Of a DNA stretch of 64,000 nucleotides, positions 7,763 through 37,109 are shown one piece after another. Position 1 is the stretch's first letter, and each line of letters starts with the position of its first letter. The notes beneath the pieces were generated by a model. The model made no database searches, was not told the DNA's origin, and saw nothing but the letters and a program-made list of their open reading frames with translations. The translations under genes and the position numbers were made by a program. The DNA is from Biscogniauxia marginata. Taxonomy: Eukaryota; Ascomycota; Sordariomycetes; Xylariales; Xylariaceae. The stretch spans positions 62,001 to 126,000 of the forward strand of contig MU404134.1 in assembly GCA_022695795.1 (NCBI GenBank), in the 5' to 3' direction.

Positions 7763-9678
<1,916 letters not shown>

Positions 9679-15126: not shown

Positions 15127-18100
15127 TCATCGTCTGATCAAATTTGACGATAGTGCAATTATACTCTCGGCTCTCTGCTTGTCTGTCGTGTTAGGGTCAT
15201 CAAACACCTGGTTCGCAGGCTCGAACGATTCCCACACTTGAATAAAGCGATCTTCGGTGATGTGGCCAATCTTTTGGAAGGCTGCCTTCATTGTGTCGTG
15301 CTCGCTAATCTTCCTCGCTTCGCTGCTTGTGATGGCCGCACCTAGCAGATCGTTCTCGTCAGTTCCCTTCCGGGCATTAAAAGTCGCGACAGCGAGCGCG
15401 CTGGCCTTTACACAATATATTATGGTTGCCGCAAGTCCAGCTGCAAGTGCTGTGGCGACGCTGGAGCCAGTTTCGGATGGGATCTCTAGGACTTTATCTG
15501 TGAGATGACGCGTGCGCTCGCTCATATGGCGCTTTACAACGTCAACACCAGGCAGGATAAAGTTCAAGTAGTCGGTTGACCCAGCCCAACTGTAGACAGT
15601 ACCGTCTCCCTTCGCTGCTCCGATGCGGAAAAAGCTTTCTCGATGGAAAGCTGTAGGGTAGTCCTTCTCGGTAAACTTGCCGCTATCCGGAGAAGAACAA
15701 AACATGAGGATCTTCCGGTCGCAAGCCTTCTGGAGCACCTTTTTGAAAAGCTCTTTCTCTTCCCCATGACTGTCGTCCGGGATTGGGACTGTCCAGGACA
15801 TGGAAATGATGGTTGCACCTTTGTCTAGTGCAGCCTGAATGGCCTTGGCAAGGTCTCATTAGAGACACGGACGTGGAAAAGGGGGGCGAAATGACTTACA
15901 TGAGCAGCGGATTCGGCCACTATCTCGGTTTTTTTCCCGTCGGGAAGAGATCGGGTCTTGAGCCTGATAGGATATATCTTCGCCATGGGACATACTCGTG
16001 TGATCATATTCGCCATAACGGTTCCATGACCTCTCGCGGACACGAAGTGCGGCCGGATCCTTCCATTTTCGTAATCGAACGTCTTGCCATCGAGGATCTG
16101 GCCGGACGAGAACGACAGATCACACGAATCTACTCCGTCGTCGATTAGAGCAACAATGACGTCCTTCTCAACTCCGCTATCCGTTTCTCTAGCCCTCTCC
16201 GGTCGGGAATCGAGGAAAGCCTTGCGAGTGTCACTCCAGAATGGCCTGATGTGGTCGGCGAACTTGTCCATGCAGTCAAGCCACTGATGAGAAGTGATAA
16301 CTTGCGAGGCTGATGAAGCTGTCTGCGAGGGGTCCTTCGTTGTGACCTTGTGCCCCTTACTTGTGTTTGATTTGATTTGGAAAACCTCGACTAAATTCTT
16401 GTCTGATGAGTCCGCGTGGCTATTTGTCGACTTCTCTTTGCCTGGATTCTTTGGCGCATTGTTTTCTTCCGAGCTTGCCTCGTGCGTAATGTTTGTTATC
16501 CTCCGAGCTTTGACATTGTTGTTGAGCCGCACCTGGAATTCCCTTACGGTATGGCTGATCCATTCCCGAGAGTCATAGGTCTAGCGCAGAGTCAGCTATC
16601 TGTGAATTATGGAGGAAATTATAAGATCAACTCACCTCTGTTGCCTCAGGAATGTGGAGATGGATTTTTCTGAGCTTGGGTAGTAGAGGGAGGCCCTCGA
16701 GTTCGCTCCATGCTCGTAAAACTGCGTTGTTGCCACTCCATCGTAACGTTATTTCGGTCAGGGGATTCGGAATTTCTTCAGCTCCCTCTGTGTCCTCCTT
16801 AGTCGCGGATTTTTCGTTTACTTTGCTGGCTACTCGGCAGATTATCTGAGGGTCCATATCAACCTTTTGCCAGTCTAGGTGCTCGACCACGAAGTTCTCC
16901 AGACATTTCTGAATCGCGTCATCACAATGGACGAGCTTTGCAGTGTCGTCTACGGTGGCCTTAATGATATGACGGACGCCTTTCCTATAGAGCCAATCGA
17001 AGAAGAACTGCATATCGCGACGTCCGAGTCCGCCTGGAGGGTCTCTGGCAGCTCTGCGAGCAGGACGTACCACATTGACTTTTGGAAATGAAACATACTG
17101 AAGGACCTTGTCGAACTGGATTCCGCTCTTGCAATCGGTCCCAAAGCTGTTCGTGAAGACCTCGTCTTTAACCTCTTCGGGGAGACCGTGATAGTCGAAA
17201 CATATCTGCACACCTATCAAGACACCCGTGTCAGCTTAAGGAAAGGGAATTTTCTCGGACGGCTCTAAGACGCTTGCTTAGGTACCTTCGATATTTTTTC
17301 CGTACAGAAACGAGACGGCCATCTCAGTGTTCCGGGTTCTCATATAATGCAACTTCAGGCTGAGGAGTATCTTCTCGGAATTCCTAGCCAGCGTAATTGG
17401 GTCGGACTTGTCGCTCTTCTTCACAGGCTTCTCGGGCACCTTCTTCTTGGGTTTATCCTCATCGTCCATCTTGATAGTCGAAACCCTCTTGATCGGAGTG
17501 TTCGGCGAGGGATCAACACGAGTATGCCCACCGTTCGAAGTCTGAATACTAGAAAGTGGCCCCCCTCCCTTAATAGCATTTATAGGTCCCTTCGGTCTCA
17601 TGCTCTCATCTCGCCGAACATCTCGTGCCTCGGAATCACGATCCTGGTCCCGCGTCCTCCTCCCACCTTCCAGAGCTAGGGCCTCCCTCCTCTTAGCTTC
17701 CTGGCGCGCTCTCTCACGTTCGTCAACCTTTTCATACCCCTGCTTTCCCCTCTCGCGATCATTATCCTGCTTTCTGTCTCGCTCACGCTCACGTTCTCGT
17801 CCCGGCTGGTATTTCGTATCCTTTGGCCTCTCTGAATACTTAGGGTCGGGATTTACTTGAAGGCTGGTGCTAGCATTATTAACTGGCTGGATAGTAGCGG
17901 CATCTTCATTTCCTAAATTGTCAAGTCTCTTCGTCCCTGTGCCCTCCTCAGCTTTCGCCTTAGACCTTTTCACCAGCGCCGCTGTGTATACAGCGGCAGA
18001 GCTCTGGTGTTCACGGTAGACCGATCTGCCATGTTTGTCCACGTAGTCTAGAAAAGTGAAGATGGGCTCATGCAGATTGGTTTCGCTCAGCTTAGCGACA

Positions 18101-18804
18101 GCCTCCTTATCTCTGCTGATTAGTATCTCGATTACCTTAACCCTATTCTCGGTACATTGACCGTAATTCACAGCGTAGTGAAGCGGTGTCTTGCTGTTCG
18201 TATCTATAGCACCCAGAGCTTTGTCGCTAGCATAAAAGATGAGCTTCTCGATCGTCTCCGCGCGGAGGTCTTTCTCAAACGCAAGGTGTAGACAGGACTT
18301 ATTACTCTCCCGCGTACAAGGGTCTGTTAGTGCGTCGGCGAGTATACCACGGCTAGATACTGGACAACTTCGCAGCATGTAATCGACCAGCATCCACTTC
18401 TTGTTCCAGATGGCCATGTACAGCGCGTTTTGACCCATATCATTCGGATACCTCAGAAGATCGGGATACTCTCTGACTATATGCTGGACCAGAGGTTTAA
18501 TCCTGCCTGACTTCATCTCCGGCGTGTGCTTTACCAGCTCGACAATGATGTGAAGCAACGTTCCGGAATCTTCGATCGCCTGACCGATTACATCTCTATA
18601 CTCGTCGACAAAGTCTCTGAGATCCTCCGATTTCGAGAAATTGCCCTCTCTTGCCCTAATAGCTTTTCTGGCAGCAGCGAAGCGTTGCCTTTTGTGATTG
18701 ATATCCGAATCTTGCTCCGTATAGAATCCATCTTCCTCGTCATCGTCGTCCTCATCTTCACTATCGCGCTCCCCGTCGGTTCTGTCCTCAAAATCTAGAG
18801 GCAT
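15127..18804 (-). CDS. Ankyrin-repeat protein with C-terminal subtilase (S8) domain, 1164 aa, four exons
   Basis: Exons: 18804-17286, 17213-16636, 16580-15900, 15843-15127. All junctions use GT-AG signals and restore one frame (for example ..NIEG/VQICFDY.., ..PEATE/TYDSREW.., ..ESAAH/AIQAALDKGATIISMSW). Order of parts: an acidic N-terminus; a helical region with degenerate ankyrin repeats (about 100-240, e.g. SKTPLHYAVNYGQ); a long charged low-complexity linker (about 310-460, RERERDRKQDNDR); a middle region found in fungal subtilase-ankyrin proteins; then an S8 domain. The subtilase triad is intact: Asp846 in ALIDDGVD, His884 in RGHGTVMA, Ser1054 in TGSSVATALAAG. There is no signal peptide, so a cytosolic protease is expected. 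Such architecture resembles fungal NLR-type death or immunity proteins in which a protease is the output domain; that role is inferred. It is transcribed divergently from the 298-aa gene. Confidence 0.85.
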
Positions 18805-19479
18805 TTTTTATCCTTATCTTTATTTTTACTTAAACGACTTACGCGCTGGGTGTTCGAGGGAGTAAACCCGAGTAAGACGCCAAAAGCTTGGAAATTCCTA
18901 GGCTTGGAAAATTGTACTCCTGCCGCGCAACTAGGGCGTGAATGTTACAAGTCTTCGTGTCAGCTTCGGGACTATTAGCACCGCTTATGGGCGTGAGAAT
19001 GCACCCCTCCTGTTTGGTTGGATTTTCTTCCTCTTAATCCTTAGCTTATTTAAAGCACAGAGGTTGCAACACAGTGTGTGCGATTTCAAGCTGGATCGTG
19101 CCCACTAGCGATCCTTCGCCCCCCTGAATAATGTTATCTCATCCTCATTTCTCTTGATCAGTATCTTATCTTGTGCCTTGTGTTCGATTTTACCAACTAC
19201 CATATGAGAGAGAGTAGAGAATATCGTACTTGATCTCAAAACACTCAAAAATAAACATCGTACTGATCAACCTATGTCCAGTGGCCGCCATTTTCTTCAT
19301 CTTTTGCTGTCTAGTGTACCATTGTTGGCTTCCTTGGCACTGCTCGTCTGATAATCAGGCCTGATTACAGTTGTCGATTAATTGCGGCTGTCGAAGGTAT
19401 TATCTAGGCAGAGGACAGCGCATCCTTGGAAAGCCTCTCTCCTCTTCTATGTGGTTGCTACAATCTCTCCTTATCAATC
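18805..19479. promoter_or_regulatory. Shared divergent intergenic region
   Basis: These 675 bp separate the start of the ankyrin-subtilase gene (minus) from that of the 298-aa gene (plus), so both promoters must lie here and joint control is possible. No specific operator was recognised. Poly-pyrimidine stretches precede both starts. Confidence 0.45.
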
Positions 19480-20376
19480 ATGACCTATGATGAAGATTCA
19501 GCACCTGCGCTTGAGGGTGTTGAACTAGACGACGATGTCGACGTCTTTGATGTTGGCATGTTTGAGGGCGGAGCTGAAGGCAGTGGTTTTCATACCAAGA
19601 ACAACCCTAAGGATCCCTATCAGAGATCCGAGGTAATCCAACGGACCGGAGCTGTCGATATCAGGTGCTCTGTCGTTGATATCGTCCATGGGTCGATGTC
19701 AGCCGACAGCGACTACTGGGCTACTTTGATGGTCTTACAATTCCGCTTCGACCCTCAAAAGAAATCGCGTCGCGTAGCAGAAGCGACAATAGAGCTAAGA
19801 TTTGATGCTTTGGGGGGTGGGGACGATGTACCCGAGGTTGAATCTATTTCATTTGACGGGAATTTCAGCTTCGTACCGACCACGCAGTCCGAAACAATTA
19901 CCCATGGTGTTGACGGCAATGTTGGCGCCAGCTATGGTGCTGAGCTGAGCGCTGGGGTCAAGTGGGAAAAAACGATTAGTCGCCAGACGACGGATGCCAC
20001 AACAGTCAGCGGTGGCAAACTGGTGCTTCACAACATTCCGCCGAATCGCGTCGCCAAGTGGACATTATTGGAGAACAAAAAGCTCAAAACAGGTGTGCCG
20101 GCATCTATGAGAGTAGCAGTTCTCATTAAGAGGAGAGACGAGAAGGTTTTTGCCTGTTTTCCAAAGTTGGAGTGCAAGGCGGACGTATGGAGCTCAGTGG
20201 AAAAGTTCTTTGGGAAGGTTCCAGAAGACGACCCTGTTCTGCTAAAGCCCGACGTGAAGCCAACGAACAGGCTGATGGTGTATGACACGGAAGAATTAGG
20301 CGCTATTGACCTCCAGAAACTCAGTGATGTTACTTTCACGACAATGATTACAGATGCTCTCAAGAAGCAATCATAG
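19480..20376 (+). CDS. Conserved fungal protein of unknown function with Gly-rich central segment, 298 aa
   Basis: Single exon. The start ATG at 19480 gives MTYDEDSAP; the frame is open upstream but has no ATG there. There is no signal peptide or transmembrane helix. An acidic N-terminus is followed by a beta-rich sequence. The central part (roughly residues 125-175) has SFVPTTQSETITHGVDGNV, then GASYGAELSAGVKWEKTI and SRQTTDATTVSGG, i.e. alternating small and polar residues framed by Ser/Thr, followed by WTLLENKKLKTGVPASMR. The C-terminus includes YDTEELGAIDLQKLSDVTF. I recall similar uncharacterised proteins in many ascomycetes but know no function. The Gly/Ser/Thr alternation resembles amphipathic hairpins of beta-pore proteins, which is only a structural suspicion. 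It sits between two NLR-like genes. Confidence 0.75.
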   Translation: MTYDEDSAPALEGVELDDDVDVFDVGMFEGGAEGSGFHTKNNPKDPYQRSEVIQRTGAVDIRCSVVDIVHGSMSADSDYWATLMVLQFRFDPQKKSRRVAEATIELRFDALGGGDDVPEVESISFDGNFSFVPTTQSETITHGVDGNVGASYGAELSAGVKWEKTISRQTTDATTVSGGKLVLHNIPPNRVAKWTLLENKKLKTGVPASMRVAVLIKRRDEKVFACFPKLECKADVWSSVEKFFGKVPEDDPVLLKPDVKPTNRLMVYDTEELGAIDLQKLSDVTFTTMITDALKKQS

Positions 20377-21219
20377 GGAATCTTACTTCCTCTACAATTT
20401 AGTTGCTATCTAGATCACAAAGACTACCTAACTATACTCGTTCTCAATCACAGACTCGGCATTTCGATAGCGTAGAGGGATAATTGTTAGACTCCTAAGA
20501 AAGGGACGGTTTTCTTTTTCATTTATTTATTTATTTTCATTTACCTAGGTACCTACCTAGGTAATAATATTTATTTATTTATTTAAAAAATTCTTTTTTT
20601 TTTCACTCTCACACTTCCTTTCTCACAATACAGTGTTAACACAGTACCTGTCTATGCTAAATGACCCTCAATCATAAGAAAACCGCGCATCAAAGCTCCC
20701 ATCGTACCGACGCTCCAATCAGAGGAAAGCAACCCATGCTCTCTATGCATGCCCTAGAGTTGTCGAAGTGTCGGTGGGGTGGGCCATTGCATAGTTTCTC
20801 GTAATGCTATACGCAAGTGGATTAGGTATCTACCTTGCACGATGATCTGCAACCATGACGAAGGGCTTGGCTCCTCAGGCCACACCATAATATGTATCAG
20901 CTCAGCCGCACGGAACGGGGAGTATACGCTAACTAGCTATCCTCGTCACCTGGAGTTATTAGCGACAGACCACAAAGTCGGCTCAGAAAAGCAGGAGTCA
21001 TTTTCACGCTTGAGGTTATTGTACTATTGCTCTCGCCTTTCTCCCCCGATCATAGGCTACCCATATCTGTAGGTGGAGTTCTGACGTTACCTGGTATCTT
21101 CGTGCTCCAATTACGCGCCGTTCCTCCGGTTCACAAATTTCCAAACCAAAACTGGAAAGACGTTGCAGTTAGGTCACTTTTATCCTCACCAATATCACAG
21201 GAGAAACCCTTTACTGGGA
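20377..21219. other. Intergenic with AT-rich and AGGT/ACCT palindromic tract
   Basis: Near 20524-20585 there is a tract of TTTA/ATTT repeats interrupted by ACCTAGGTACCTACCTAGGT. The rest is the promoter space of the large STAND-like gene. No coding region is supported. Confidence 0.45.
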
Positions 21220-24200
21220 ATGCCTTCTTCGAGGAGCTTAAGCCAGCAATCTTCAGACGAAGATGACATAGATAAGCCGGGCGCTATTGTTGAGGATGAG
21301 ACAATGAATGAGGCCCGCTCAGGAGGCTCGGGTAGTTCAGAGTCGTTGAAGCAAAATGATGACGCTCGTAGTGAGTCAACGAGAACATCTGAGCTGCTTC
21401 CCGGATCAATTCCCACTTCTCCATCACCAGTCGAGGTGAAAGAGCATGGGAATATAGGTCTGAATATTGCCAGCCGTTTTTGTCTATCTAAATACCATGA
21501 CTATGAGTGAGAAAGCGAGAGATAATTCCTGTGCCCTTCAACATATGTACTCTCTAACTCTCGCAGTGTCATTACCGTCCATGGTATACGCGATGAACCC
21601 CGTACGGCATGGCGAACTCCGGATGGGAATTGGTGGATCTTGGAGCAGATTTTCGCAGGCCTCAGCGCAAGGCAGATTGACTTCCAATACGAAATTGACG
21701 AAGAGGCAGACATATTTAGGTCAAATGGGATTGAAAAGCAGGCGCAGATTCTTTTAGACGAATACACGTCAAACAGGGCTGATCTCCCCAGCACCGAGGT
21801 AGATCGGCCCATTATCTGGATGTGTCACGATATTGGGGGGGCTATTGCAAAGCAGGCTCTTATTCATGCGGCCTTGGAGCCCCTGAGGTACGCGAGGATT
21901 GCGTACCTCACAACAGCCATCATATTCCTAGGGACCCCACACCGGGCCAATTCAATGAGCGAACTCGAGGACCAATTGCACCATCTGTTGATGTTGCCAG
22001 GACCCGGAATCAAGTCCAGCATCGTGCAAAGAATCAAGGACCTCGCTACACAAATTACAGCCGTAAATATACAGTTTCCCGAGACCAAGCTGACTTGCCG
22101 TGCTATCATTATGAACATATTTAGCGAAGAAGGGTGGAAATCCCTAGAAGAACCGAAGGATGACGAAAAGCTAGAGGTTAATAATAGCATAAGAGCTGGT
22201 AGTAGTGGCACGGAGAGTAAAATTGCTGGTGACCAAGAGCAAGTTACTGAGGCCCCGAGCCGTGTGATAGAATCACCCAGTTTGAAAAATGGAGGTTTGG
22301 AGAGCGAGGCAAGGGATGAGTTGGACAAACTGCTGAAGCTGGAGGATCTCGAGGCTCAAAGTTCAACCCCTGGGAAGTTAAAATCTGGGGAAAAGGACGG
22401 CATCCAGTGGAGACTGGCGCCCGCTCCGGAAGAGAATCCTACTATCGTGACACCATTTCGCCGGTACACGGTATTGATGGGTCACCCTTTTGAGACATTC
22501 GGTCGGTCTCGAGTAGACACGAATCATCTTGACCTGGTCAAAGGAGGCAACTCCTGGATGTTCTTTGCGAATTTCTTTAACAAGATCGCTTATCGTGAGT
22601 GGTACATCTACATCGGCTTTTTGTAACTCATCTAACAATATCGGGTTCTAGCTATTGAAGTTAACTATCGCATCATCCAGAATCAGATCAGCCTACTCTC
22701 ACTAGCTCCACCAAGACGAACAACGAACTTGCACTTTGATGCGCAAGGGCCAAGGGATCCGATAATTGCCTGGATATATAAGCAGCATGCGTTCCAGGAG
22801 TTCAACGTCCCCGTCGAAACGAAGATGCTTCACTTGCATATCAATGAACCTGGTTCGCCGAGCATCGGTCAGCTTTCTCAAAAGCTTTACATTGACTACG
22901 ACCTCGAGTATGGGAACCGCGACAACTTACCCGAGCAGTCAGTTCTTTTCTTCCAGTTCGACAAGTGGGATAATAGATATAACAGTCTTCGAGCGATGCT
23001 TATCACGTTCCTGAACGACATCATCTGGCACTTCTGGAAAGACCGAGCCCACCAGGTCGCCCACGTACTAAACTTCTTCTCTTGCTATCGCTGTTTCTCT
23101 CTGGAAGACTTGTATTATGCTTTTAATTACCTGAGGGACTTTGCAGGAGTAGAACAACTCACGTTTTTCATCAGCTGCTTCGATCAATGTGACGATGAGG
23201 AGCGGAAGTGGTTCCTAAAGCGCGTTTTGAAGAAGCAGGGGTTCACTTGCATGATATCTAAAATGATAATTTCGACAAGTGGCCCTGACGATTCCGTCAT
23301 GGGTGAACTTGAGCCGATTCCCACCATCGACATCAGTAAATGCCCGGCGTACCAAGAGGGTCAGACGGAAACCAGTGAAGCAGAGGTAAGCAACTAGTCG
23401 TTTCTCTTGTTAGCGAGGACAGTAATAGCGGGATTACACCGCGGCGCCTGGATTCCATGCTTATCTTGAATGTGCTTTCTTTACTGTTGGGATCGTATTT
23501 ATCATCTGTCGTCGTAGGAAAATAACTAATTCGCAATTACATCGCAGGTTGACAAACTTCGAATGGTACTGGTAAAACTGATCAAGAGACGGACAATCTT
23601 CAAGAATTACAAGCCTGAGCTTATAAGACTGTTGATTGAATGCAAGAAAACACCATACCTCGGGCGAATAATCTTCACCTGGCTCGGCTCATATAAGCGC
23701 GGGGCAGCAATGGCGGAGATAGAGAGTGTTCTCGAGAAGCTATCTCCTGTCACACCTCTAAACGTTGCCAATTTATTTTTTGAGGCATTAGAAGAGCCTC
23801 AGAGTCAGGCATGGGCCAAACAAGTTTACCAATGGGTGAAATATGCCGCACAACCTCTAACTCCCGAGATTCTCGCCCAAGCAGTTGCACTATCGACCTC
23901 CCCTGGCAGCGAGATGTGGATTGCAGATATCGATAATGAGGACTTCTGCCGTGAGATGGAACGTGTGTTCCGTGGGGTTATCATAGTGGATGGGCGCGAT
24001 GTCAAATTCAGTCATGATACCTTCTATGAGCTTCCCGGCCTAGGCACAGAAGGCAGTCCAGAGGACGACATATTAGACATTCATCGTCAGATCGCGGAGG
24101 TCTGCCTGCGCTATATTAAATCAAGTGAAGCTTCCGAGGCGCTATCGGCTCTTTCAGTAGAGCATCATGACGGTTCCACGGGAGCCGTACCTCTCATGCT

Positions 24201-27200
24201 CCCAAGATCCAACTTTGCCGAGTACGCAGTTCGGTTTTGGCCTATGCATTATGGCCTCAGTAAATCCAAAGCGCCAGGGGAGTCAGCAATAGGTATTTTC
24301 CAAAATAATCGTATAAGGAATGCATGGGCCGAAGCGTTCTACGTTTTATCAAACCCGTTTACGCGTATACATCGAAGTTACTTCACCCCACTACCTTATA
24401 TGGCGATGATAGGCCTGGAGGATTTGGTTCTGCTACAAGTTAAAAAGGAGAGTGGCACACCATCATTCAATCAAAGCTGCTGGCTAGCCATCATCGAAGC
24501 CGCGCGACACGGACATAGGGATGTGGTCCTCTTACTCCTAGATCATGCTCATGAAGACCAATCCAGCCTTCGAGAAGCGATTTCTTGGGCGGCATCGTAT
24601 GGTAAAGGTGGTGCTCTAGACATACTCGTTGATAAAGCGCGAGCAATCGAGGGCTTCCAGTGGCCCGAGTTCATTCTCAGTAGGGCTGCTTCTGCGGGTC
24701 TTGTGTCTCTAATATCAGCTTTGCATGCGTCTGACTACAATATGAACGAGAAGGACTCGTCGGACGACATGACAGCCGTTATTCTCGCTGCGCGGTGTGG
24801 GCATAAGGAGACAGTCGATTTATTGATAGGCTATATGGCCGATCTCAGCATTTTGGATGAGGCTGGGGATCCGCCTTTATTCCAAGCGGTCAAACGCGGC
24901 GATCCCGATATCATCAAGTCGTTCCTCACCGCGGGTGCAGATGTCCATCAGAAAGATAGTAGGGGTGGCACGGCTGTTAATTCCGCGGTGGATTTCGGTC
25001 GGTTCAAAGCACTAGAGATGCTTATTGGAGCCGGGGCAGACTTCAACACCGGAGAAGAGACGGATGACGATAGGGACCTTGACCTTAGAATTCCTATTGT
25101 CCACGCCGCTGAGTTTGGATATAAGGAGTGTGTGCGTATACTCTTAGAGAACAACGCAGATGCATGTGCCGAGTCACCCACTGGGAGTGCACTGTATCTC
25201 GCCTCGCGCAATTATGTCGAAATATGTCGCATGCTCCTAGACAAGGGGGCAGAGCCCAACCAGTGCTACAAGGACAGAGATATGCTTCTCCTGCGGGCGA
25301 TCGCAAGCAAACAGATAAAAATGGTGGAGCTTCTGATCGATAAAGGTGCTATTGTGGACTCGGTAGACACCAGTGGTCCTTACTGTAACACGCCGTTAGC
25401 CCGCGCGGCCGAGGAGCGATCCAAGGACATCTTTTATCTTCTTCTCGAAAGGGGAGCCAACGTCAATTTTGTGGGCGAAGGGTCGTGGTCACCGCTTTTC
25501 ACGGCCGCCTTCCAGGGAGAGTTCGAAATGGCCAAAGTTCTAGTTGAGAAAGGCGCCAATGTACACTGGAGAAGAAATGATGGCTGGACGCCTCTGCACG
25601 CCGCTTACGATAGGCCCAATATTCTTGAGCTATTTCTCAAGCATGGTGCGAATATCAACACATTGAGCGAGGACGGAACCGTCGTGATGCTTGCCTCGAA
25701 GTGGAACTACACCGAAAGTCTCGAGTGTCTGCTCGCGCAGAATCCCAAGCCAGACCTGGAAATAGAAGTTGCCGACAGCCCGGATCACGATGACTTCAAC
25801 TGTACAGCATTACTGATTGCCTGCAAGTACGGAAACTCCAGGTGTGTGAAACTACTACTCGACGCGGGTGCAAATATGAACTACAAGATGAAGGATGGGA
25901 GCTACGCCTTGGAGCTTTGTCTCAACAAGGGAGGCACGGCGAGCGAGGAGACTCTCAAGGTGTTTCTCGAGTACAAACCAGACTTGAGACAGAACGATGA
26001 CAACGGAGACACGGTACTTCACAGTATTCGTGCTGATACGCCGTTGTCCGTTGTCAAGCTCCTAGTTGAATCAGGAGCCCCCGCCGATGCCGCGAACAAG
26101 TACGGCTACACACCATTAGCCGTCGCCATAGACAAGGAGAACGTGGAGGTCGCACAGTATCTTGTTTCGTGGGGTGTTAACGTCAACGTCTTCAACAGAA
26201 AATTCGGCAGCCTCCTACATCTAGCTTGCATGAGACATTCAGTAGAGCTTCTCGAGCTTCTAATCGAGAACAACGCGGACCGCAGTGCTGTCGACCTCGA
26301 TTTCGGCGAACCACTATTGTATACAGCTATTAAGGACGGGAACATTGTCAAGTCTCAAAATAAACTAATCCGTTACTTGGTCAACGAAGTTAGAGTCGAC
26401 GTCAACGTACAAGGCGGAAGCCTGGGCTATCCCATAATTCTCGCAGCACAGAGAGGTCATTTTAAAATGGTGAAGTACCTGATCCGTCATGGTGCTGATG
26501 TCAATATCGCCGATGACCTTGGACGTCGTGCGATCCACGTGGCCGCTGCTGAAGCTCAAGAATTCATTATCTCCGCCCTCGTCAAAGCAGGAGCCGACTT
26601 GTCCGCCAAAGATAAATATGGTCGGACACCGCTGCACTTTGCCGCGATGGGATGGAGTATAGGTACCTTCCTCGCCTCGTTACTGAAGGACTTCGACATA
26701 GACCAGCCTGATCACGATGGGTGGACGCCGCTGATGTGGGCCTGCAGGACAGCTTACAGTCAGTCTAATCTAGACACGTTAATTAAGCAGCACGGTGCGA
26801 GTATTTGGGCACGAAGCCGGGATAATGAATGGTCACCTCTCAAGATCGCTAATTTCCACGGTTGGCATCAGGACGAAACAGATCAGCTGAGGCCACCCGA
26901 GGATAAACGCACATGGGTGAATAAAGACGGAAAGCAGGAGAAATGGGATGACAGGCTACACGAGAGCCGACCTGGTGATTGCAAACTACCTTCTCGCTGC
27001 TCGAGTTGTTTCGCGGTTCGTACTTTTCCCTCTTCCTTTTCTATTTCTCTTTTTCTCCTTTCCCCTCTATTACAAATTCTCTGCAGGCTACGTTATTGAC
27101 ACTATCGGAAGCCCATATGGGGTATTGAGTGGAAATGTAGCGATTGTGACAACATGAGTCTTTGTTTCAAATGTTCCGGGGATCGGTTCACTATGCACAA

Positions 27201-27432
27201 TAAAGCACATCATTTCGAGGAAGTTGGCCCGCGCTACAAGCCGAAGGACACATATAAGTTGCAATATGATTCTGTGGTCAGTAGCGATGAGCGTGAGGAG
27301 ACTCCAGAGAGCGAACAAGATGAAGATGACGATGGCAACCGGGGGAGAGATGAACAGGAGGAAGAGGAAGAGGAAGAGGAAGAAGAGAAAGAAGAGGAAG
27401 AAGAGAAAGAAGAGGAAGAAGACGATACCTAG
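21220..27432 (+). CDS. STAND/NLR-like protein: SesB-like hydrolase, P-loop-less STAND region, ankyrin repeats, ZZ finger, 1945 aa
   Basis: Five exons: 21220-21506, 21567-22594, 22652-23385, 23548-27015, 27112-27432. Parts in order: a Ser-rich acidic leader (1-95); an alpha/beta-hydrolase of the SesB type (97 to about 235; DVITVHGIRDEP, IIWMCHDIGGAIAKQAL) in which the usual nucleophile Ser of HSLGG is Asp184; a linker; a region matching a NACHT/STAND core in layout (439 to about 760), where the P-loop place reads LHINEPGSPSIGQLSQ, without the GKS/T lysine; a post-NACHT-like segment (KFSHDTFYELP, IHRQIAEVCLRYI); about 20 ankyrin repeats (970-1790); a ZZ zinc finger (CSSC, WKCSDC, LCFKC, H-H) split by the last intron; and a Glu-rich tail. 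It is likely a cytosolic sensor/scaffold. Absence of catalytic and nucleotide-binding residues suggests non-enzymatic signalling. The last intron (27016-27111, donor GTTCGT, acceptor GGAAG) is the weakest junction. Confidence 0.82.
27355..27425 (+). repeat. GAA/GAG coding microsatellite (poly-Glu tail)
   Basis: A purine-only tract of GAG/GAA with interspersed AAA codons encodes the Glu/Lys tail at the C-terminus of the STAND-like protein. It is likely length-variable between strains. The AT-rich block starts about 50 bp downstream of the stop codon. Confidence 0.8.
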
Positions 27433-28528
27433 TGATGGTCGAGGGAGTTATAACGAAGTTATTTACTAGCTATTACAACTATACTTCACACATAATAAGT
27501 TTTAAGTTGCACAGTTAAAAACGTGTTATAAATAATATTAATTTAAGTAATAATATTAAAATATAAAGTTATAAATATTACTTTTGTCATGTTAAGAGGG
27601 CAAGCTAGGTATAACTAATGTATTCCTATGAGGGAGGAATAAAGCAAAACAAACGCTTGCCTTGTCCTAAAGGAAGGGGAGAGAGTCTACCTTTATATAC
27701 TTGTTACAAGTCAGGGACTAACCTAGAGCAGGTAAGGTACGTGCTAGTAGCTTCTGTGACCCCTGCTTATAACAACTTTTCACTTTATATATAAAAAATT
27801 TTATAAGTTTTACCTATTTATTTATTATTATAACTTAATAAAAATAAATTTAATTAAATAATAAAGTTAAAAATAAAACTTGAAATATATTTAATTATTA
27901 AAATAACTTTAATAATTATTTTAATAATTTTTTTTAATAATTTTATTAATAAACTAAAAAGTTAAGTATTATTTTAAATCTTTTTATATTATTATAATTT
28001 TTATATTTTTTATAATTATTATATTTTTATTTATTAAACATTATTTATATGATTTTAAAATTAATTAATAATTATTATTATTATTTTAATTATAAATTTT
28101 ATTTTATTAAAATTATATATAATTTTTTAAATATTATATTTCGTAATTATATTACATATTAATTTATATTATTTTTAATATATATTTAAGTTTTTATAAA
28201 AAGTTTTTATTTATTTATTTAAACGTGTTTAAAGGCATTTTTATCGTTATATAAAATTAAAAGTTTAATTTTATTTAACTTATTTTACGTTATAATTATA
28301 TAATAAGACATTTATTATCACGGCAATGTAAAGGGGTTCAAAGTAATACTTGATTTCCTGGTTTATTAACAAAAATACTAAGGGTAAAGAAGAAGGAAAA
28401 TCTAGAATGGTCGCTAGGGCCATTTTAACAGCTAAATACATTTCAGGCTTTATATAAGCCTTATTGTTTTATAGTGAATATAATGGCAAGGTACCGTAAC
28501 TTATTATCTTGTTACCAAGGTTAGTTAT
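27433..28528. other. AT-rich RIP-like left flank of the nested retrotransposons
   Basis: Extremely A/T-rich, with no coding capacity and with TpA-rich composition typical of RIP. Two islands of normal composition interrupt it: a possible small solo LTR (27590-27774) and a 200-bp island (about 28316-28528) that touches the outer element. Confidence 0.7.
27590..27774. repeat. Possible short solo LTR
   Basis: The 185-bp island begins TGTTAAGAGGG and ends CTTATAACA, giving the TGTTA..TAACA inverted ends typical of LTRs. It is distinctly GC-richer than its surroundings. No clear 5-bp target duplication is visible, and no second copy is in the window, so the call is tentative. Confidence 0.35.
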
Positions 28529-29034
28529 TGTGACGAACCTCCCTGTGTGTTCCTAGTCAGCTGACTTCACAGGTAAGTACGTACTAGGTTTTCTTAATTT
28601 GAAGGTAATAGTGGGTTGAGATTAGTTTAAGTATTTCATAATGATTATTCGTTAAAGAGGTTTCAAGGTACTCTCACTATAGTATCAAAAAGTAACTATA
28701 GTTTTAAATTAATAACTAAAAAACTAGAATAAATAACTAGAAACAAGAGAAATCTTATTCTTCTTATATTAAATTTCCTTCTAAAATAATACCTAACATC
28801 CTTAATTATTTTCTCTCATTCTCTATAAAAATAATAGAGAATACAATTATTCTCTTTTATTCTTTATGAGAACAACAAAAAATATAATCATTCTCTTTCA
28901 TTCTTTATAAAAACAACAAAAAATACAATTATTCTCTTTTATTCTCTATAAAAGCCACAAAAAATACTACTATATGTCACGTGACTCGTGTTCACATAAC
29001 TATTCACCTTTTTAACCCCTATTAATTCGTAACA
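28529..29034 (-). repeat. 3' LTR of the outer element (506 bp)
   Basis: Runs from TGTGACGAACC to TTCGTAACA on the plus strand; in the element's sense it starts TGTTACG and ends GTCACA. It contains about four copies of a 41-42-bp minisatellite (ATTCTCT..AACAACA-type unit, about 28805-28970). A purine-rich tract just outside it on the minus strand (AAAAGAGAGAAATAG) is the probable polypurine tract. Confidence 0.85.
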
Positions 29035-29101
29035 CTATTTCTCTCTTTTAATTTTGTTTTATTCTTAAAACGCTTTAAGTTAATACTTACCATTCTTCAC
29101 T

Positions 29102-29650
29102 ATGTCTTTAAGTAAAATAACCAAACATTCTTAATTAAATTCGAAAAAGAGTTTCACTAAACATCGTTATGAGTTGGTTTCCGCGATCGCCAAGTTTGGT
29201 TTTGAAGTTATACTATACTCCTACTATTTCGATCGAGGCCTTGCTTATAAAATGTTAAAAGGTCGCAAAAAGTATCAGAATTATATTAAAATAAACATTT
29301 TTTAATATAACGAAAATCGCATTTCTCTTAATTCCCTAAAAAACATTCATTTAAAAAAACTGCGTGTTAATAAGGAGAAATATACGGCTTTTAAGAAGCA
29401 CCGACGTATTCTTTAAAGCCTTTAAAAGCTTTTAACTCGTATGTCTTACTTAAACCAACAATCCGAGTTTCTTCGTAAGCGAGAAGTAAAATTTATTTAG
29501 CGTGAACTTAAAAACTTAAATAAGTTAAAAAAACAAAAGCTTTTTAAAGCAAAGTAACAACGTCTTAATAAAGAATAACAACGCATAAAGAAATCGCTGT
29601 GTCAGCTTGAATCTAAGTAAGACGTGCTTACTTTAGGGGTTTTCCCCTCC
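29102..29650 (+). pseudogene. Decayed antisense Cys-rich/coiled-coil ORF of the outer element
   Basis: Reads on the strand opposite to gag-pol, between the pol 3' end and the LTR. From an ATG at 29102 the frame reads MSLSKITKHS, then KSFTKHRYELVSAIAKFGFE, a stretch with the spacing of a CxxC..C..CxxC..C zinc cluster in which the cysteines now read Tyr (YSYY, AYK, KYQNY), and then a Lys/Arg/Leu-rich coiled coil (LRKREVKF.., LKNLNKLKKQKL). Several stops interrupt it. The match of the same Cys spacing in the nested copy supports a real ancestral gene. Similar unnamed proteins are common in fungal genomes. Function unknown. Confidence 0.6.
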
Positions 29651-29714
29651 TTTAATTAATCCCGACTAGGTCACAAACTAGGTCCTCAAATCCCCTTAAA
29701 CGATTTAAGTTCTA

Positions 29715-29870
29715 GCGGTAAAAGTTCTTAAGTTTATTTGTCAAATTCTTTAAATGCTTAAATGGTTCTTAAGTGTTTTCTTTTAATAAGTAACCCTCCT
29801 ATTTAACAAAATATTATAATTAACTTTCGATTCGTTTTAAGTTTAATATCTTTTTTACTTCGTACTTATT
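29715..29870 (-). pseudogene. Chromodomain remnant at the C-terminus of outer pol
   Basis: The minus-strand frame reads NKYEVKKILNLKR, then YFVK-stop-EGY, then LLKENT-stop-EPFKHLKN. This is the chromodomain pattern in which the two Trp codons (in KWEGY and NTWEP) have become stops. Chromodomains at the integrase C-terminus steer chromoviruses to methylated histone H3. Confidence 0.7.
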
Positions 29871-30521
29871 AGGGTTTTCTTTAAATTTTAATTGGTTTTT
29901 TAGCATAGCGTTATTTAATGCTAATTTTAAGAGCGAAACATAAAATACAAGATATATTCTAGATCCTTTTAATAGTACTAATTTATAATTAACTTTCGAA
30001 ATAACCTTCTTAATTTTATATAGTCCTAATTTTTTGAATTTAAGTTTTTCGTTAGGTCGTTTTGTTTTAATTTAGGGTGTTTTTAATGTTACGCCTTATC
30101 ATTAACGGAGCAAGTAAATCATGTCTCTTCTCCTAAAAATTGGTCCCTTAATTCTTCTTTTATTATAGTACTTTATTATTCTATCCTGAATAAACTGTAA
30201 TTCTTTTTATAGCCGTTATTATACTACCTAGATCTTTTTAAATAATACTTCTGCTCTTAGGGCCTCTATTTCGACTTTTAGTGCTTTTATAAGTTTAATC
30301 GATTATTTTTAAGCTTCCGCCTTTTACCTATATACTACCTTGTGTAGTGACATTTTTATATCTTTATTAATCGAAGTGTTATATACTATTTGGGCTATTA
30401 ATAACAATTTTACTTAGTTATTTATTTCCTAGTTAACATAGCTTTATAAATATTGTTTTATTATTTGGTTTAGTTTTTTTATTTACTCGTTTATTTAGGG
30501 GTAATATGTTATAAATAACTT

Positions 30522-30776
30522 TTATTTAATTCTCATTCGTTTTATTAAACTAGTCCAAAATTTCAATATAAATAACTTATCTTTATTTAAAACAACACGT
30601 TTTAATAGCTTATGTTTATTAATATATTCTCTTAAGAAGCTAAAAGCTAATTGTTTTACTATGCTTAATTCGTTAAATAGTAAAAAATAGGCGTATTTCA
30701 TGAGTTTATTAATGATTACCCATATGCTGTCATAAGGTATTCCTATGGTAGGATCTTTTAACTCCGGGAGTTTCAC
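30522..30776 (-). pseudogene. Integrase core fragment of the outer element
   Basis: This is the longest surviving open stretch of outer pol (84 codons). It includes IPYDSIWVIINKLMKYAYF, FLREYINKHKL and KLFILKFWTSLIKR, matching the retroviral-type integrase core of Ty3/Gypsy elements, where catalytic Asp codons now read Asn in places (LNKDKLF for the usual SDRD-type motif). It is flanked by stops and non-functional. Confidence 0.8.
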
Positions 30777-32036
30777 TATAAAATCCCATATAATTATATT
30801 CTATGTTTTATTAGGTATTTAGGTTAGTTATAGTAGTTTATATGGTTTATATCGTGATACTTTAACCTTATTATAAATGTTATAATTCTTTATAATTCTT
30901 TTAACTGTTTATTGTATTTCTAGAAAGTCGAATTCTTCTTAAAGTCGTTTTATTGTTTTGAAAATCCCTTGGTGGTTATATAAGGGATATTCGTGAAATT
31001 CTTTAACGAATTCGTCTTATACTTGTTTTAATATGTATACCTTTTCCTTATATAAAAGAAGTTCGTCACTAGATCTTTATTAAGACTGTAATTATTTTTC
31101 CTTTTAATTGTAATTTTCCTTAAATTGTTATTTCTAGTCTCTTATGTTGATTCGCATGTAAGTTAATACAACTAATCCGTCATTTTATTATTTAAATATC
31201 TAAACATCTTTTTTATTGATTTTTAATTTATAATCTCCCTTTTTACTAAGAAAATCTACTTAGATATTTTCCTTTCCCCTAATGTGCTGGATTTTAAAAT
31301 TAAACTTGAATAAGAAAATCATTTAACGTTTATATCTTTAATTAAGCGTTTATATTATTATAAATCGTGTAAAGTTCTTGTGATTTAAATAGATATTAAT
31401 AGGTTTTTTAATTCTATTAAGTTATAATTCCCATTCCTTTAGTGCTTTAATAACTACTAACAATTCCTTATTATAAATCTAATAATTTAATTTAGCACTA
31501 TATAGTGCTTTAAATAGGTACGCAATTAAGTACTATTTCCTGTTATCTTCTAATTGCTCCAAAACTGTTTCAATAGCGAAATCTAAAGCGTTTATCCTTA
31601 GTCGTTTCTTTTTATTTTCATTTAGAAGTTTATATATAACCTCATTAGTTACAACTTCTTTTAGCTATTAAAAAGCCTATTTAGCTTCTTTAATAAAATA
31701 AAAAGCCTTTTTTGTTTTTACTAAGGTAATTAATTCCGTTAATAGTTTAACGATACGCCCGAAATCTTTAATGAATTATTTGACATAATTAATAAAGCCA
31801 AGAAATGCGCGTATGTTTATAACACTTTTAAGTTCTAGCTAATCCTTAATTGTTGTTATTTTTCCCTTTTAAATACGAATTTCTCCTGGACTTATTATAA
31901 ACCTTAAATAGTTTAGTTTCTTAACATACTATTCACTTTTAGTCAAATAAACAAGTAAGTTTACCTTTTCTAGGGCTTCTAATATCTACTTTACATGTTC
32001 CTTATATTTCTTCTCGTTTTCTAAGTAAATTAGTAT

Positions 32037-32440
32037 TGTTACGAACCTTCCTTGTGCTGTGTCACGTGTAGGTCACGTGAACCAGAATAAATCGTTGAAT
32101 CATGGGTTAAGAATCCATAATTCAATAATTTAATAGATCATTAAATCATGAATAAAGAATTAGTGATTTAATGATTCGCAAGTTTTTATGTAAGGAGAGA
32201 ACGAGTATAAATAGATTGGAATTTTTTATGTATTTAGTTATTCATTCTTTAATTATTAATCTAAAACTATAGTTACTCTTTAATACTATAATGAAAGTAC
32301 CTTAAAACCTCTTTAACGAACATAACATTATAAATCATTTAAACTAATCTTAATTTATTATTACTTTTAAATTAAGAAAACCTAATACGTACTCACTTAT
32401 GAAGTTAGCTAACTAAAAACACATAGGGAGGTTCGTCACA
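32037..32440 (+). repeat. 5' LTR of the nested element (404 bp)
   Basis: Starts TGTTACGAACC and ends GTTCGTCACA. It contains a run of overlapping direct and inverted ATTCAAT/ATTTAATGAT motifs (about 32095-32190). The sequence right after it, TTTTGATAGCTCC, has no TGG-type tRNA primer-binding site. Confidence 0.88.
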
Positions 32441-33581
32441 TTTTGATAGCTCCTTAATTAGTGCTTAACATTGATTTAAAAGGAGGGACTTTTAATCGAA
32501 ATAGTCTTAAGACAAGTATGCCCCTTAAAACCAAAGGGTAACAAGAAAAGAAATAAGTAAAAGAATAATAGTTAATAAGCTTTTAAACGAAAGCTTTAAA
32601 TCCTTTTATGGTACAATAAAAAGGTTTAAAAAAACCAACACAAAAATTCATTATAATTATAACTAAAAAAGAGTCATAAGAGGACATCTCGGAAAATCAG
32701 CAAGAAGAAGCATCGGAGGAAGAAAAAAAGGAGAAGGAAAAAATACCTAAAAAAAAGATAAACAGGCAAAACAAACCCTACCTCTTAAAAATAAGTAACT
32801 ACTTTTAAACGATAGCGACTTTAATAACTTAAACGACGAAAACAACATAATAACCCTCGATATAAAGGGTTTTAAACTAATTACACTTAATAAATATAAT
32901 AAGTTAAACGATTTAAAAGGATTTTTAATTTAAGTTAAAACTTACTTATAGTTTTATTATAAGACGATTATCATTAAAAAACAAAAGATTTTTACGGTAT
33001 CTTAGCTCCTAGTTAAAACCGCTTTAACCTGGTTTTAACTAGTATTAAAAAATTATTTAAAAAACGGATTAAACGCCCGAGAAGATACGAAGAAAGTCTT
33101 TAAGAATTATAAGGAATTTAAAAAATAATTTAAGTTTATATTTAGCAATTTAATTCTTAAGTAATAAGCCGAAGCTCGATTTCACAAATTATGACAAGAT
33201 AAAAAGGCTTTAAATTACGCTATTAAGTTTAAAAAACTCGTAAGCTAGTTATAACTACTTATCGAAAGTTTATATTACTTGTTTTATTAAGGGTTAAAGG
33301 ACTATATAAAGGATGAGTTATATAAAATAAACCTATATAAAGAAAGGAACTTAAGAAAGTTTAATAATTACGTTATAATAATAATTGCTATTAATAACGA
33401 AAACTTCAAACGGTACCTTGAAAAGAAAAAGACGGTATAACGAAGAAATAGCGACTAGCTAAAGGGAGGAAATTATAAAAGCGGTACTAAAACCAAAAAA
33501 GGCACGGGAATAAAGTTAAATCTTATTAAAATTAACGTTGTTTAAAAAGAACGGAAAAAACAAGATAAATTAATTATTAAA

Positions 33582-33623
33582 TGTTTTAATTGTAAAAAGA
33601 AAGGACATTATAAGAACGAGTGC
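33582..33623 (+). pseudogene. Gag CCHC zinc-knuckle of the nested element
   Basis: Codons spell C-F-N-C-K-K-K-G-H-Y-K-N-E-C, an intact CX2CX4HX4C knuckle typical of retroelement nucleocapsid proteins that bind RNA. The surrounding gag frame is broken. In the outer copy the second Cys of the same motif reads Tyr (41986-42027). Confidence 0.85.
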
Positions 33624-36050
33624 CGAAGTCTTAAAAAACAGGAACTAAAAACAGGAGGGATTCTTTAACTTGAGAAAAGAGTCGCCGAAGTAAGGGTTTA
33701 ATTTAAAAATAATAAAGAAATAAACTAAGTATTTATTATCGGTACTATTAAGGTAAAAAAGATTAAGAAGGCTTTTATAAAAAGAATTTATAGATTTCAT
33801 TAAGTTAACCGCAAAGATTACCTAGAGGATGACCACTCGTATTTAAAACATCTTACATTAAAACAAGCCAGATAAAGATATAACGAAAGCGAACTACTAT
33901 ACGTATATAATAATTACAAGCTAGGATACGACTTAGGAATTAAGTTAAACTATAGTGATTTACATTAGAGCCACTATAAAAACGATAAATGCGAAACTTA
34001 TTAAGGGAAAAGCTAATATAATAACTTAAACTAAAAGCTTTATATAGATAATAGTTGTAATGTTTATTAAAGCTCAAGGGAATATATATCGTTACATTAA
34101 AGCTTTTATACTAACGACGCTTATTAAGTATATAAAAGTTTTAAAAATAAAGCCGGTTATTATCCTTAAGAACTAAAAAGTGACGACATAAAAGAAAATA
34201 AATGTATTTATAATAACACCTCACGATGGTTATATTACTTTAAAGCATGTTATTTTTACTTAAGCTCCGAAAGAAGTTACGAAGTAATGGTTAAAAGTTG
34301 TATATATTATATCTCGGTATTATGCGATATATATAACTTACTTAAAACAGGTTTCAAAAAAGACGAGATAAAGAAAGAATTATAAGAATTATAAAAAGAA
34401 CTATATTTTTTATAATGGCTCGAAAAACGAACTAAATATGACATTAATTTATTTAGCTTTATAAGGAAACACTTAACAAAGCAGTAAATAAAAACATATA
34501 TAACTAAACAAAGCTATAAACAAATCACTAAAGCATACCTCAAAAAAAGAGGGAAACTCCTAAAAATCAATATAAACCTAAAGGGAGATATCGAGATACC
34601 CCTAATAAGTAGACTTAATAATTACTCCTTTTATTTAAGAATAATCTAGAATTTCAAGAAATTCCGAGTTAATAGAACGAACTTGGGCTATAAAAAGGCT
34701 CTCGAAAAAAAATTAAAGTTTTAATATATAAGATTCTATATAAAGGATAAACCTTTTACCCCCTATTATGTAAAGGGTAATTAAAGAGATTATCTAAGTA
34801 ATGATTACTAGAAACACGCTTTTATAAAAGCCTAAAAATAGAAGGACATCCGGGTTATAACAACTAAAAGAAAACCAAAAAGGAAGGGACGTAGAAAACC
34901 AAAAAACGGTAAAGGCTCTCGCTAGTAAGGTAGTAAGAAGCTATAAATAATAAGTCTTTATATAAAGTCTAATCGGGACTTAATAATATTATTATAATTA
35001 AAGTTAGGTATAATAAAAGGAAGTATAAAGCCTTAATAGATTTAAAAGCAAATAAAAGCTATGTTTTAATAAAGGTAGTTTAAGAAAATAAAATACTATA
35101 AGTATATAAATAAAGTCCATATAAGCTATGAAACTTTAAAGGAAACATGTCTAGTTACGAAAATAGTAAGGTATTAAGAGAAATAATCCTTTTCTTGGTA
35201 ACTATTTAAGAACACCCCGAATAAGTCATTTTTAACATTATATATATATTAAATCATAACATAATTTTAGGAATAAATTAGCTTAAAAAAAGCAATCCAC
35301 GAATAAATTTCGAGATAAACACGTTTTATTAAAATTAGAAATAAAAGGAGTTAACCACTACGGGTTACGAAATAAGTATTGTAAGTAACTCTAGAAAAAC
35401 GAATACAAAAACGAAACATATTACTTATATAATTCGAGTAACCAAATCTAAAGATTTAACAAAAAGAGTACCGCGTAAGTACCTCCGTTTTTATAAATTA
35501 TTTAAAAATAAAACAAAAAAAGAATTATTAAAACATAATTAATAAAATCACTAAATTTACTTTAAAGAAAGAAAATAATTAAAATTATTTTTAATATATC
35601 TTATGAATTAAGAAAAAATAAAAAGCATTATAAAAGGGAATTTAAGAGGATCTCGATAAAGGATATATTCAAAAATCTAAATCTTCGTTAGGATACCTGG
35701 CGATTATAGTACTTAAAGTTAATAAAAACGGGAAATAACATGTCAATAAAAAAGGAAACCTAGTGTGGCGATAAGTAATTAATTATCGACACTTCAATAA
35801 AATAACTAAAAAAAACGGATATTTATTACCACTAATGAAACTCATGAGAGGATAAATCAATAAAGCTTAAATCTTTATAGCACTAAATCTTCGCGATGGA
35901 TACTATATAATTAAAATGGCTAAGGGATACGAATAATATATAACCTTTCAAACGATATATAGATATTATAAGTATAAGGTTATGCCATTTAGACTTATTA
36001 ACGCACTTATTATATTTTAATATATAATTATAATAGTTTTTCGCAAGTTT

Positions 36051-36750
36051 CTGGATAAATTTGTATTTATTTACCTAAACGATATACTAATTTACTTAAA
36101 AAACGAGAAAGAATATAAAGAACATATAAAGCAGGTGTTAAAAGCCCTGGAAAAGGCAAACCTATTTATTTATTCGACTAAAAGTAAATAGCATATCAAG
36201 AAACTAAACTATCTAGGGTTTATAATAAATCTAAGAGAAATTCGTATTTAAAAGGGAAAAATAATAACAATTAAGAATTAGCTAAAACCCAAGAATGTTA
36301 TAAACGTACGCGCATTTCTTGGCTTTATTAACTATATTAAATAATTCATTAAAGATTTCGGGCGTATCGCTAAACTATTAATAGAATTAATTACCTTAAT
36401 AAAAACAAGAAAGGCTTTCTATTTTATTAAAGAAGCTAGATAGGCTTTTTAGCAATTAAAGGAAGTTATAACTAGTGAGGTTATATGTAAACTTTTAAAT
36501 AAAAAGAAAAAGAAATAACTAAGGACAAACGCTTTAGATTTCGCTATTAGAGCAGTCTTAAAGCAATTAGAAAACAATAGGAAATAGTACCTAATCGCGT
36601 ACCTATTTAAAGCACTATATAGTGCTAAATTAAACTATTAGATTTATAACAAGGAACTATTAGTAGTTATTAAAGCACTAAAAGAATGGGAACCATGGCT
36701 TAGCAGAACTAAGGAACCTATTAATATTTATTTAGATTATAAGAACCTTA
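36051..36750 (+). pseudogene. Reverse transcriptase / RNase H remnant of the nested element
   Basis: The frame reads FVFIYLNDILIYLKNEKEY, with the RT active-site box YxDD changed to YLND, and continues through LGFI, KNVINVRAFLGFINYI, FIKDFGRIAKLLIEL and into RNase H (LDFAIRAVLKQLE, YNKELLVVIKALKEW). In-frame stops occur at 36585-36587 and 36639-36641, among others. Loss of the first catalytic Asp alone would abolish activity. Confidence 0.85.
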
Positions 36751-37109
36751 TATGATTCATGATAATACAAACGCTTAACTAGAGACATGAGCGTTAGATG
36801 ATTTTTCTATTTAGATTTAATTTTAAAATTTAGCATATTAAGGGAAAGGAAAACATTTAAGTAGATCTTCTTAGTAAAAGGGGAGATTATGAATTAAAAA
36901 TTAATAAAAGAGATGTTTAAATGTTTAAATAATAAAATGACGGATTAGTTATATTAATTTATATATGAATTAATATAAGGAACTAGAAATAACGTTTCAA
37001 AGAAAATTATAATTAAAAAGAAAAATAATTACAGTCTTAATAAGGATTTAGCGATAAACTTTTTTTATATAAGGAAAAGGTATATATATTAAAACAAGTA
37101 TAGAACGAA

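What the first reader, a model, noticed from the sequence alone, without database searches (positions are those of the whole stretch)
15127..27432. Three-gene STAND/NLR-like locus: ankyrin-protease, unknown beta-rich protein, hydrolase-STAND-ankyrin-ZZ giant
Two multidomain proteins with ankyrin sensors but different outputs (a complete S8 protease; a SesB-like hydrolase fold) flank a 298-aa protein. The protease gene and the small gene are divergent over a 675-bp shared promoter region. In fungi, SesB and subtilase domains are known N-terminal or output parts of NLR-type incompatibility and immunity proteins, and genes for sensor and effector are often neighbours. The set here could be a self-contained death or defence module with the 298-aa protein as executor or guardee. 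Co-function is inferred from adjacency and architecture only.
Basis: partly seen in the sequence, partly recalled or inferred. Interest (0 to 1): 0.75.

Follow-up and report, generated by a model that had tools for sequence, protein, structure and literature searches.

The report
Fungal protease and hemolysin-fold gene trio
Three neighbouring fungal genes look like a cell-death switch in which a protease and a large ankyrin sensor-like protein control a small protein predicted to fold like a bacterial pore-forming hemolysin; the trio recurs in other fungi, but pore formation has not been tested.

Summary
The three genes are real and they belong together. A is an ankyrin-S8 protease with an intact catalytic triad. 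B is a 298-aa protein outside Pfam. C is a 1,945-aa protein: hydrolase fold, NACHT-like module, ankyrins, ZZ finger. The host is Biscogniauxia marginata.

The same genome holds a second, deeply diverged copy of the trio on contig C4 (26-50% identity). A third B relative, on C8, sits beside TPR-CHAT and caspase-family genes. In other fungi A, B and C share contigs, often with consecutive locus tags.

The main new result is B's predicted fold: two AlphaFold models of the family rank leukocidin/alpha-hemolysin-type pore formers first in the PDB, with a poorly ordered segment where a membrane stem would lie. B lacks an obvious signal peptide.

C is not a conventional NLR: the full Walker A motif is absent in all 85 family rows covered, and the hydrolase nucleophile is Asp in 70 of 70 complete rows (Gly in the C4 copy).

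Best reading: a protease-gated intracellular pore module, built like fungal gasdermin-protease clusters but with a hemolysin-type executor and a pseudo-enzyme sensor or scaffold. Linkage is shown; cleavage, pores and death are inferred.

The parts
15127..18804 (-). Gene A: ankyrin-S8 protease, 1164 aa, exons 18804-17286, 17213-16636, 16580-15900, 15843-15127
   Evidence: identical to P0121
18109..18315 (-). A: ankyrin repeats (residues 164-232)
   Evidence: Ank_2 E 2.5e-6
16140..16142 (-). A: catalytic Asp846 of the S8 triad
16026..16028 (-). A: catalytic His884
15460..15462 (-). A: catalytic Ser1054
18805..19479 (.). 675-bp divergent gap between the starts of A and B (candidate shared promoter region)
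   Evidence: coordinates; promoter function not tested
19480..20376 (+). Gene B: 298-aa protein of predicted leukocidin/alpha-hemolysin-type fold, candidate pore former
19618..20265 (+). B: beta core aligned to hemolysin-type structures (residues 47-262)
19882..19986 (+). B: candidate membrane stem (residues 135-169), low-confidence segment between long strands
   Evidence: pLDDT below 50; hydropathy alternation at 144-150 and 154-160
21220..27432 (+). Gene C: hydrolase / NACHT-like / ankyrin / ZZ protein, 1945 aa, exons 21220-21506, 21567-22594, 22652-23385, 23548-27015, 27112-27432
21823..21840 (+). C: hydrolase nucleophile elbow CHDIGG (residues 182-187), Asp in place of Ser
22843..22869 (+). 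C: degenerate Walker A position, NEPGSPSIG (residues 503-511)
23167..23190 (+). C: degenerate Walker B position, FISCFDQC (residues 611-618)
24490..26860 (+). C: long ankyrin-repeat array (limits approximate, set by eye)
   Evidence: Ank_2 E 1.7e-105, 12 stretches
26998..27240 (+). C: ZZ zinc finger, split by the last intron (27016-27111)
   Evidence: ZZ E 8.8e-4 on the last exon; comparison with homologues

Best explanation
The locus is a conserved three-gene fungal module for controlled self-permeabilisation. B is the executor: a cytosolic pore-forming protein of leukocidin/alpha-hemolysin-type fold, kept inactive as a monomer. A is the switch: an intracellular subtilisin-like protease with ankyrin repeats, which would cleave B, most likely in its flexible N-terminal or C-terminal flank, so that B can assemble and insert its stem. 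C is the control protein: an ankyrin-rich sensor or scaffold built from a degenerate hydrolase and a NACHT-like module without an ATP-binding motif, which would hold or trigger A and/or B rather than act as a classical NLR ATPase. Shown: gene structures, an intact protease triad, B's predicted fold in two family members, absence of Walker A in C, and linkage of the genes in this genome and in other species. Inferred: cleavage of B by A, pore formation, cell death, and C's role.
Against: No direct evidence of cleavage, pores or death. B's models have mean pLDDT 70.4 and 69.3, with the candidate stem and both flanks poorly predicted; Foldseek TM-scores are low (0.17-0.37 in the rows of this family). 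No sequence match to a leukocidin family or structure. Hydropathy alternation does not single out the candidate stem: none of the 25 positions with the strongest alternation falls there. 46 of 87 B rows on contigs of 10 kb or more have no A or C partner in the truncated lists. In two genomes a listed member lies elsewhere: Fusarium xylarioides B (H9Q74_005454) away from A/C (H9Q74_013688/9), and F. decemcellulare C (NM208_g3022) away from A/B (g2289/g2290). The C8 B relative has no match to A or C in the 19 kb read. 5 of 120 B-family rows have a fairly hydrophobic N-terminus.
Confidence: 0.6

Rival explanations
1. B is a divergent fungal gasdermin and the locus is an ordinary gasdermin-protease (Q2L-type) cluster with an extra neighbour.
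For: Same gene company (S8 with ankyrins, TPR-CHAT), same size class and same genomic logic as reported for fungal gasdermins (PMC12881547, PMC10197012).
Against: Both B models rank hemolysin-type structures first and no gasdermin is among the rows shown; no gasdermin family is among the Pfam hits of 110 members. Absence from these lists is not proof, and the Pfam model may miss fungal gasdermins.
Confidence: 0.12
2. B shares only a common beta-sandwich arrangement with hemolysins and makes no pore; it is a guardee, inhibitor or substrate whose state is read by A and C.
For: Moderate model confidence and low TM-scores; no sequence match to known pore formers; a shared fold shows no function.
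Confidence: 0.2
3. B is a weapon or secreted toxin used against competitors, and the neighbours process or control it.
For: The structural relatives shown are mostly secreted bacterial toxins (secretion recalled).
Against: B has an acidic, non-hydrophobic N-terminus, and only 5 of 120 family rows reach a 10-residue mean of 1.8 near the N-terminus; A is also without such a stretch. No dedicated signal-peptide predictor was run.
Confidence: 0.05

Closest known systems
Fungal gasdermin-protease clusters (HET-Q1/HET-Q2; Q2L S8 and CHAT proteases)
   Same: A small candidate membrane executor is encoded beside an intracellular S8 protease with ankyrin repeats, or beside TPR-CHAT; cleavage is the expected trigger.
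   Different: B has a predicted hemolysin-type beta fold rather than a gasdermin fold, and a third gene (C) with a degenerate NACHT module is part of the set.
Leukocidin/alpha-hemolysin small beta-barrel pore-forming toxins
   Same: Predicted cap fold over residues 47-262, with a poorly ordered segment where the stem would lie.
   Different: Fungal, apparently cytosolic, no detectable sequence similarity (identities 4-14% in the structural alignments), gene beside a protease; pore formation untested.
Fungal NLRs with SesB-like / NACHT / ankyrin architecture
   Same: C has the same domain order, a NACHT-derived module and ankyrin repeats.
   Different: No Walker A in the family rows covered; Asp or Gly in place of the Ser nucleophile; ZZ finger at the C-terminus; linked to A and B.
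HET-S/NWD2-type NLR-executor gene pairs
   Same: A sensor-like giant next to a small membrane executor.
   Different: A protease is present; amyloid signalling motifs were not looked for; B is not of HeLo type by the structure rows shown.

Membership tests
Fungal protease-executor (gasdermin/Q2L-type) cluster | Intracellular S8 or CHAT protease with ankyrin, TPR or WD repeats beside a small candidate executor gene | tested here: met
   Window and C4 (S8 with ankyrins) and C8 (TPR-CHAT)
Fungal protease-executor (gasdermin/Q2L-type) cluster | Executor of gasdermin fold | tested here: inconclusive
   Hemolysin-type structures rank first; no gasdermin in the rows shown, which does not exclude it
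Fungal protease-executor (gasdermin/Q2L-type) cluster | Executor activated by cleavage | not testable with these tools
   Needs biochemistry
Leukocidin/alpha-hemolysin family | Cap fold of the family | tested here: met
   Predicted models only:
Leukocidin/alpha-hemolysin family | Sequence match to family profiles or solved members | tested here: not met
   No such match in Pfam or NCBIfam scans of 110 members or in the PDB sequence search
Leukocidin/alpha-hemolysin family | Secreted with an N-terminal signal peptide | tested here: not met
   Crude hydropathy test only: B best 10-residue mean 0.92 near the N-terminus
Leukocidin/alpha-hemolysin family | Ring-shaped transmembrane pore | not testable with these tools
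   Needs biochemistry or microscopy
NLR/STAND (gene C) | NACHT or NB-ARC with Walker A (GxxxxGK[ST]) | tested here: not met
   0 of 85 rows covered have the full motif; two have a bare GKS at the site
NLR/STAND (gene C) | Descent from a NACHT module, with C-terminal repeats | tested here: met
   NPHP3_N in 10 of 23 relatives, best E 2e-13; Ank_2 in 23 of 23
SesB-like serine hydrolase (gene C) | Ser nucleophile in the HSxGG elbow | tested here: not met
   Asp in 70 of 70 rows complete at the elbow (17 of 87 rows gapped there); Gly in the C4 copy
S8 subtilase (gene A) | Asp-His-Ser triad | tested here: met
   D846/H884/S1054; 119/117/115 of 120 homologues. Oxyanion Asn is Asp (D979) in 119 of 120

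The most novel reading that the evidence does not exclude
Ascomycetes use a further class of intracellular death pore beside HeLo and gasdermin: a protease-gated protein of leukocidin/alpha-hemolysin fold, wired to interchangeable immune-type proteases (S8-ankyrin or CHAT/caspase-like) and overseen by a conserved pseudo-enzyme giant without ATPase or serine-hydrolase residues. A fold known to me only from bacterial toxins would then be a self-killing effector in fungi.
Probability: 0.5. Interest if true: 0.9.

Novelty: new variant of a known kind. Interest (0 to 1): 0.8.

Why it matters
Fungal cell death is described as resting on a few membrane executors, mainly HeLo-type proteins and gasdermins (PMC12881547, passages and one section). 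A hemolysin-fold executor under protease control would add another and would show that the protease-executor gene pair is a general design in which the pore former can be exchanged. It gives a testable partner for many ankyrin-S8 proteins now named only 'intracellular serine protease' or 'hypothetical protein', and a function to look for in a conserved NACHT-derived family that has lost its ATP-binding motif. My searches of the held open-access library (listings seen) and term searches in four papers on fungal death and NLRs found no mention of a fungal leukocidin-like executor. The main gasdermin-protease paper (Clave 2022) was not held, so this is not proof of priority.

Tried and rejected
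B as a known domain: no credible Pfam or NCBIfam family and no PDB sequence relative (the single hit, EDS1 at E 0.92, was taken as chance).

C as an active NLR with lipase output: rejected because of the Walker A and nucleophile changes. The C4 copy of C seemed at first to lack the hydrolase; three-frame translation shows a diverged one with SHGIGG.

B as a gasdermin: no gasdermin was among the structural rows shown. Kept as a rival.

Other CHAT genes of the genome as B partners: the C9 and C106 CHAT loci were read, and a B profile over the six frames of all loci fetched by then found B only at C80, C4 and C8.

RNA families and tRNAs in the window: none at the thresholds used.

Paper searches gave nothing relevant in their listings (three of them no paper; one search listed 12 of 24).

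Not examined: strain-level presence/absence, expression, and gene order in other species beyond shared contig lengths and locus tags.

Full report
What is there. The window is G000:C80:62001-126000 of a 45.3-Mb assembly. Protein A equals a database protein of Biscogniauxia marginata (Xylariales) on a contig of the same length. Three genes were modelled by hand. A (minus, 18804-15127, 1,164 aa) has ankyrin repeats and a subtilase domain. B (plus, 19480-20376, 298 aa) has no Pfam match. C (plus, 21220-27432, 1,945 aa) has an alpha/beta-hydrolase region, a NACHT-like module, a long ankyrin array and a ZZ finger. My model of A is letter for letter the database protein. The odd last splice of C, an AAG acceptor, is supported by homologous ZZ fingers. 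A and B start 675 bp apart on opposite strands; B and C follow in tandem.

The set is conserved within the genome. Searching the genome with each protein separately put the best paralogues side by side on contig C4: C at 515.8-520.0 kb minus, B at 521,975-522,862 plus, A at about 523.4-526.9 kb plus; identities are 26% for C, 36-39% for B and 34-50% for pieces of A. Gene order is as in the window, with B inverted, so the link outlived a rearrangement and deep divergence. One more B relative was found, on C8 (32-34% identity). It follows a TPR-CHAT gene (CHAT E 5.9e-31) and a C14 caspase-family gene (E 9.4e-21), all on the same strand within about 9 kb; a HET-domain gene starts about 5 kb away. 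No match to A or C was seen in the 19 kb read there. Thus the three B genes found all sit beside protease-domain genes. With 29 S8, CHAT and C14 loci counted (25 S8 matches taken as 20 loci, 4 CHAT, 7 C14 matches taken as 5 loci), random placement within 5 kb has about 0.8% chance per gene. The window and C4 copies share descent, so these are not three independent events.

The set is conserved between species. Three protein searches gave 147 B, 524 A and 114 C matches, of which 120, 120 and 114 were listed. Of 87 B rows on contigs of at least 10 kb, 41 have A or C among the listed rows; the lists are cut, so this is a lower bound. Where both records on a shared contig have serial locus tags, A and B are consecutive in 11 of 11 (for example GIQ15_01939/01940, QQX98_006493/006494, CGRA01v4_14826/14827); the other 17 of the 28 contigs were left out because they have no tags, non-positional DRAFT numbers, or are the window. 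B and C are consecutive in 3 of 3. A and C differ by 1 to 3 in 10 of 11 and by 8 in one (FSST1); five differ by exactly 2. Fusarium lateritium has C, B, A as ACHAPT_012980/81/82 (tags counted by eye). In 4 of 114 C proteins, and none of 120 A proteins, B is joined whole or in part to the N-terminus: true fusions or merged gene models of tandem neighbours; three of these four share a contig with A. Against this, Fusarium xylarioides and F. decemcellulare have a listed member elsewhere. Named hosts of listed B rows include Sordariomycetes, Leotiomycetes (Hyaloscypha) and one Onygenales species (Arthroderma).

What A is. The S8 triad is intact and conserved (D846 119, H884 117, S1054 115 of 120), with Asp in place of the oxyanion Asn (D979, 119 of 120). 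The N-terminus is hydrophilic, so an intracellular protease is likely.

What C is. In an alignment of 86 relatives (those of 1,600 aa or more, of 114) plus C, none of the 85 rows covered has GxxxxGK[ST]; two have a bare GKS. The only canonical P-loop of the 114 is in the weakest, marginal match (P0354, E 1.7e-4). At the Walker B position FDQC predominates (58 of 87 rows). NPHP3_N still matches 10 of 23 relatives (best E 2e-13), which shows descent from a NACHT module. The hydrolase elbow is HDxGG-like, with Asp in 70 of 70 complete rows, and SHGIGG in the C4 copy. Asp can be a nucleophile in some alpha/beta hydrolases (recalled), so activity is not excluded for the main branch; the Gly of the C4 copy argues that catalysis is not essential there.

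How it most likely works. Reviews report that most fungal gasdermin genes lie beside genes for S8 or CHAT proteases, often with ankyrin, TPR or WD repeats, and that HET-Q2 cuts HET-Q1 (PMC12881547, section 20 read; PMC10197012, passages). The present modules have the same gene company, but their small partner is predicted to be a hemolysin-type protein. I therefore propose that A, licensed or released by C, cuts B and so permits pore assembly in the cell's own membranes. Steps shown: genes, domains, conserved residues, linkage, predicted fold. Steps inferred: cutting, pore, death, the role of C, the stimulus.

Novelty. The kind, a protease-gated executor cluster, is known. The executor fold and the P-loop-less third protein are the new elements. 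No paper in the listings is on a fungal leukocidin-like executor; noncanonical P-loops in fungal NLRs as such were reported in 2014 (PMC4986451, passages).

Noticed in passing
window 28001-44000: AT-rich block (24-27% GC) with TpA/ApT 1.2-1.4 and (CpA+TpG)/(ApC+GpT) 0.48-0.62, the signature of repeat-induced point mutation; it begins soon after gene C ends.
   Followed up: partly
G000:C8:520215-529001 (L023, L024): Three same-strand ORFs: C14 caspase-family gene, TPR-CHAT gene, B relative; a HET-domain gene starts about 5 kb further on.
   Followed up: partly
G000:C9:124362-133558 (L031, L032): Another CHAT gene with a C14 caspase-family gene about 3 kb away but no B relative; its executor, if any, is unknown.
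   Followed up: partly
gene A residue D979 (window 15685-15687): The S8 oxyanion position is Asp instead of Asn in 119 of 120 homologues, suggesting altered catalysis as a family trait.
   Followed up: no
P0330 (Chlorociboria aeruginascens, 2445 aa): A C-family protein annotated with an N-terminal pro-kumamolisin domain and a weak S8 match ahead of the ankyrins: a fusion or a merged gene model.
   Followed up: no
P0014, P0044, P0085, P0115 (B-family rows): Several B proteins of about 260-300 aa are named 'intracellular serine protease' although no protease domain is listed for them; the name probably comes from the neighbouring A gene or merged models.
   Followed up: no
window 2904-4868, 6217-7536, 8665-9348, 49360-50307, 60463-61269, 61983-63998: Neighbours with ordinary domains: FAD/BBE oxidoreductase, M14 carboxypeptidase, GH47, fungal rhodopsin domain, Band-7, Mon2.
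   Followed up: no
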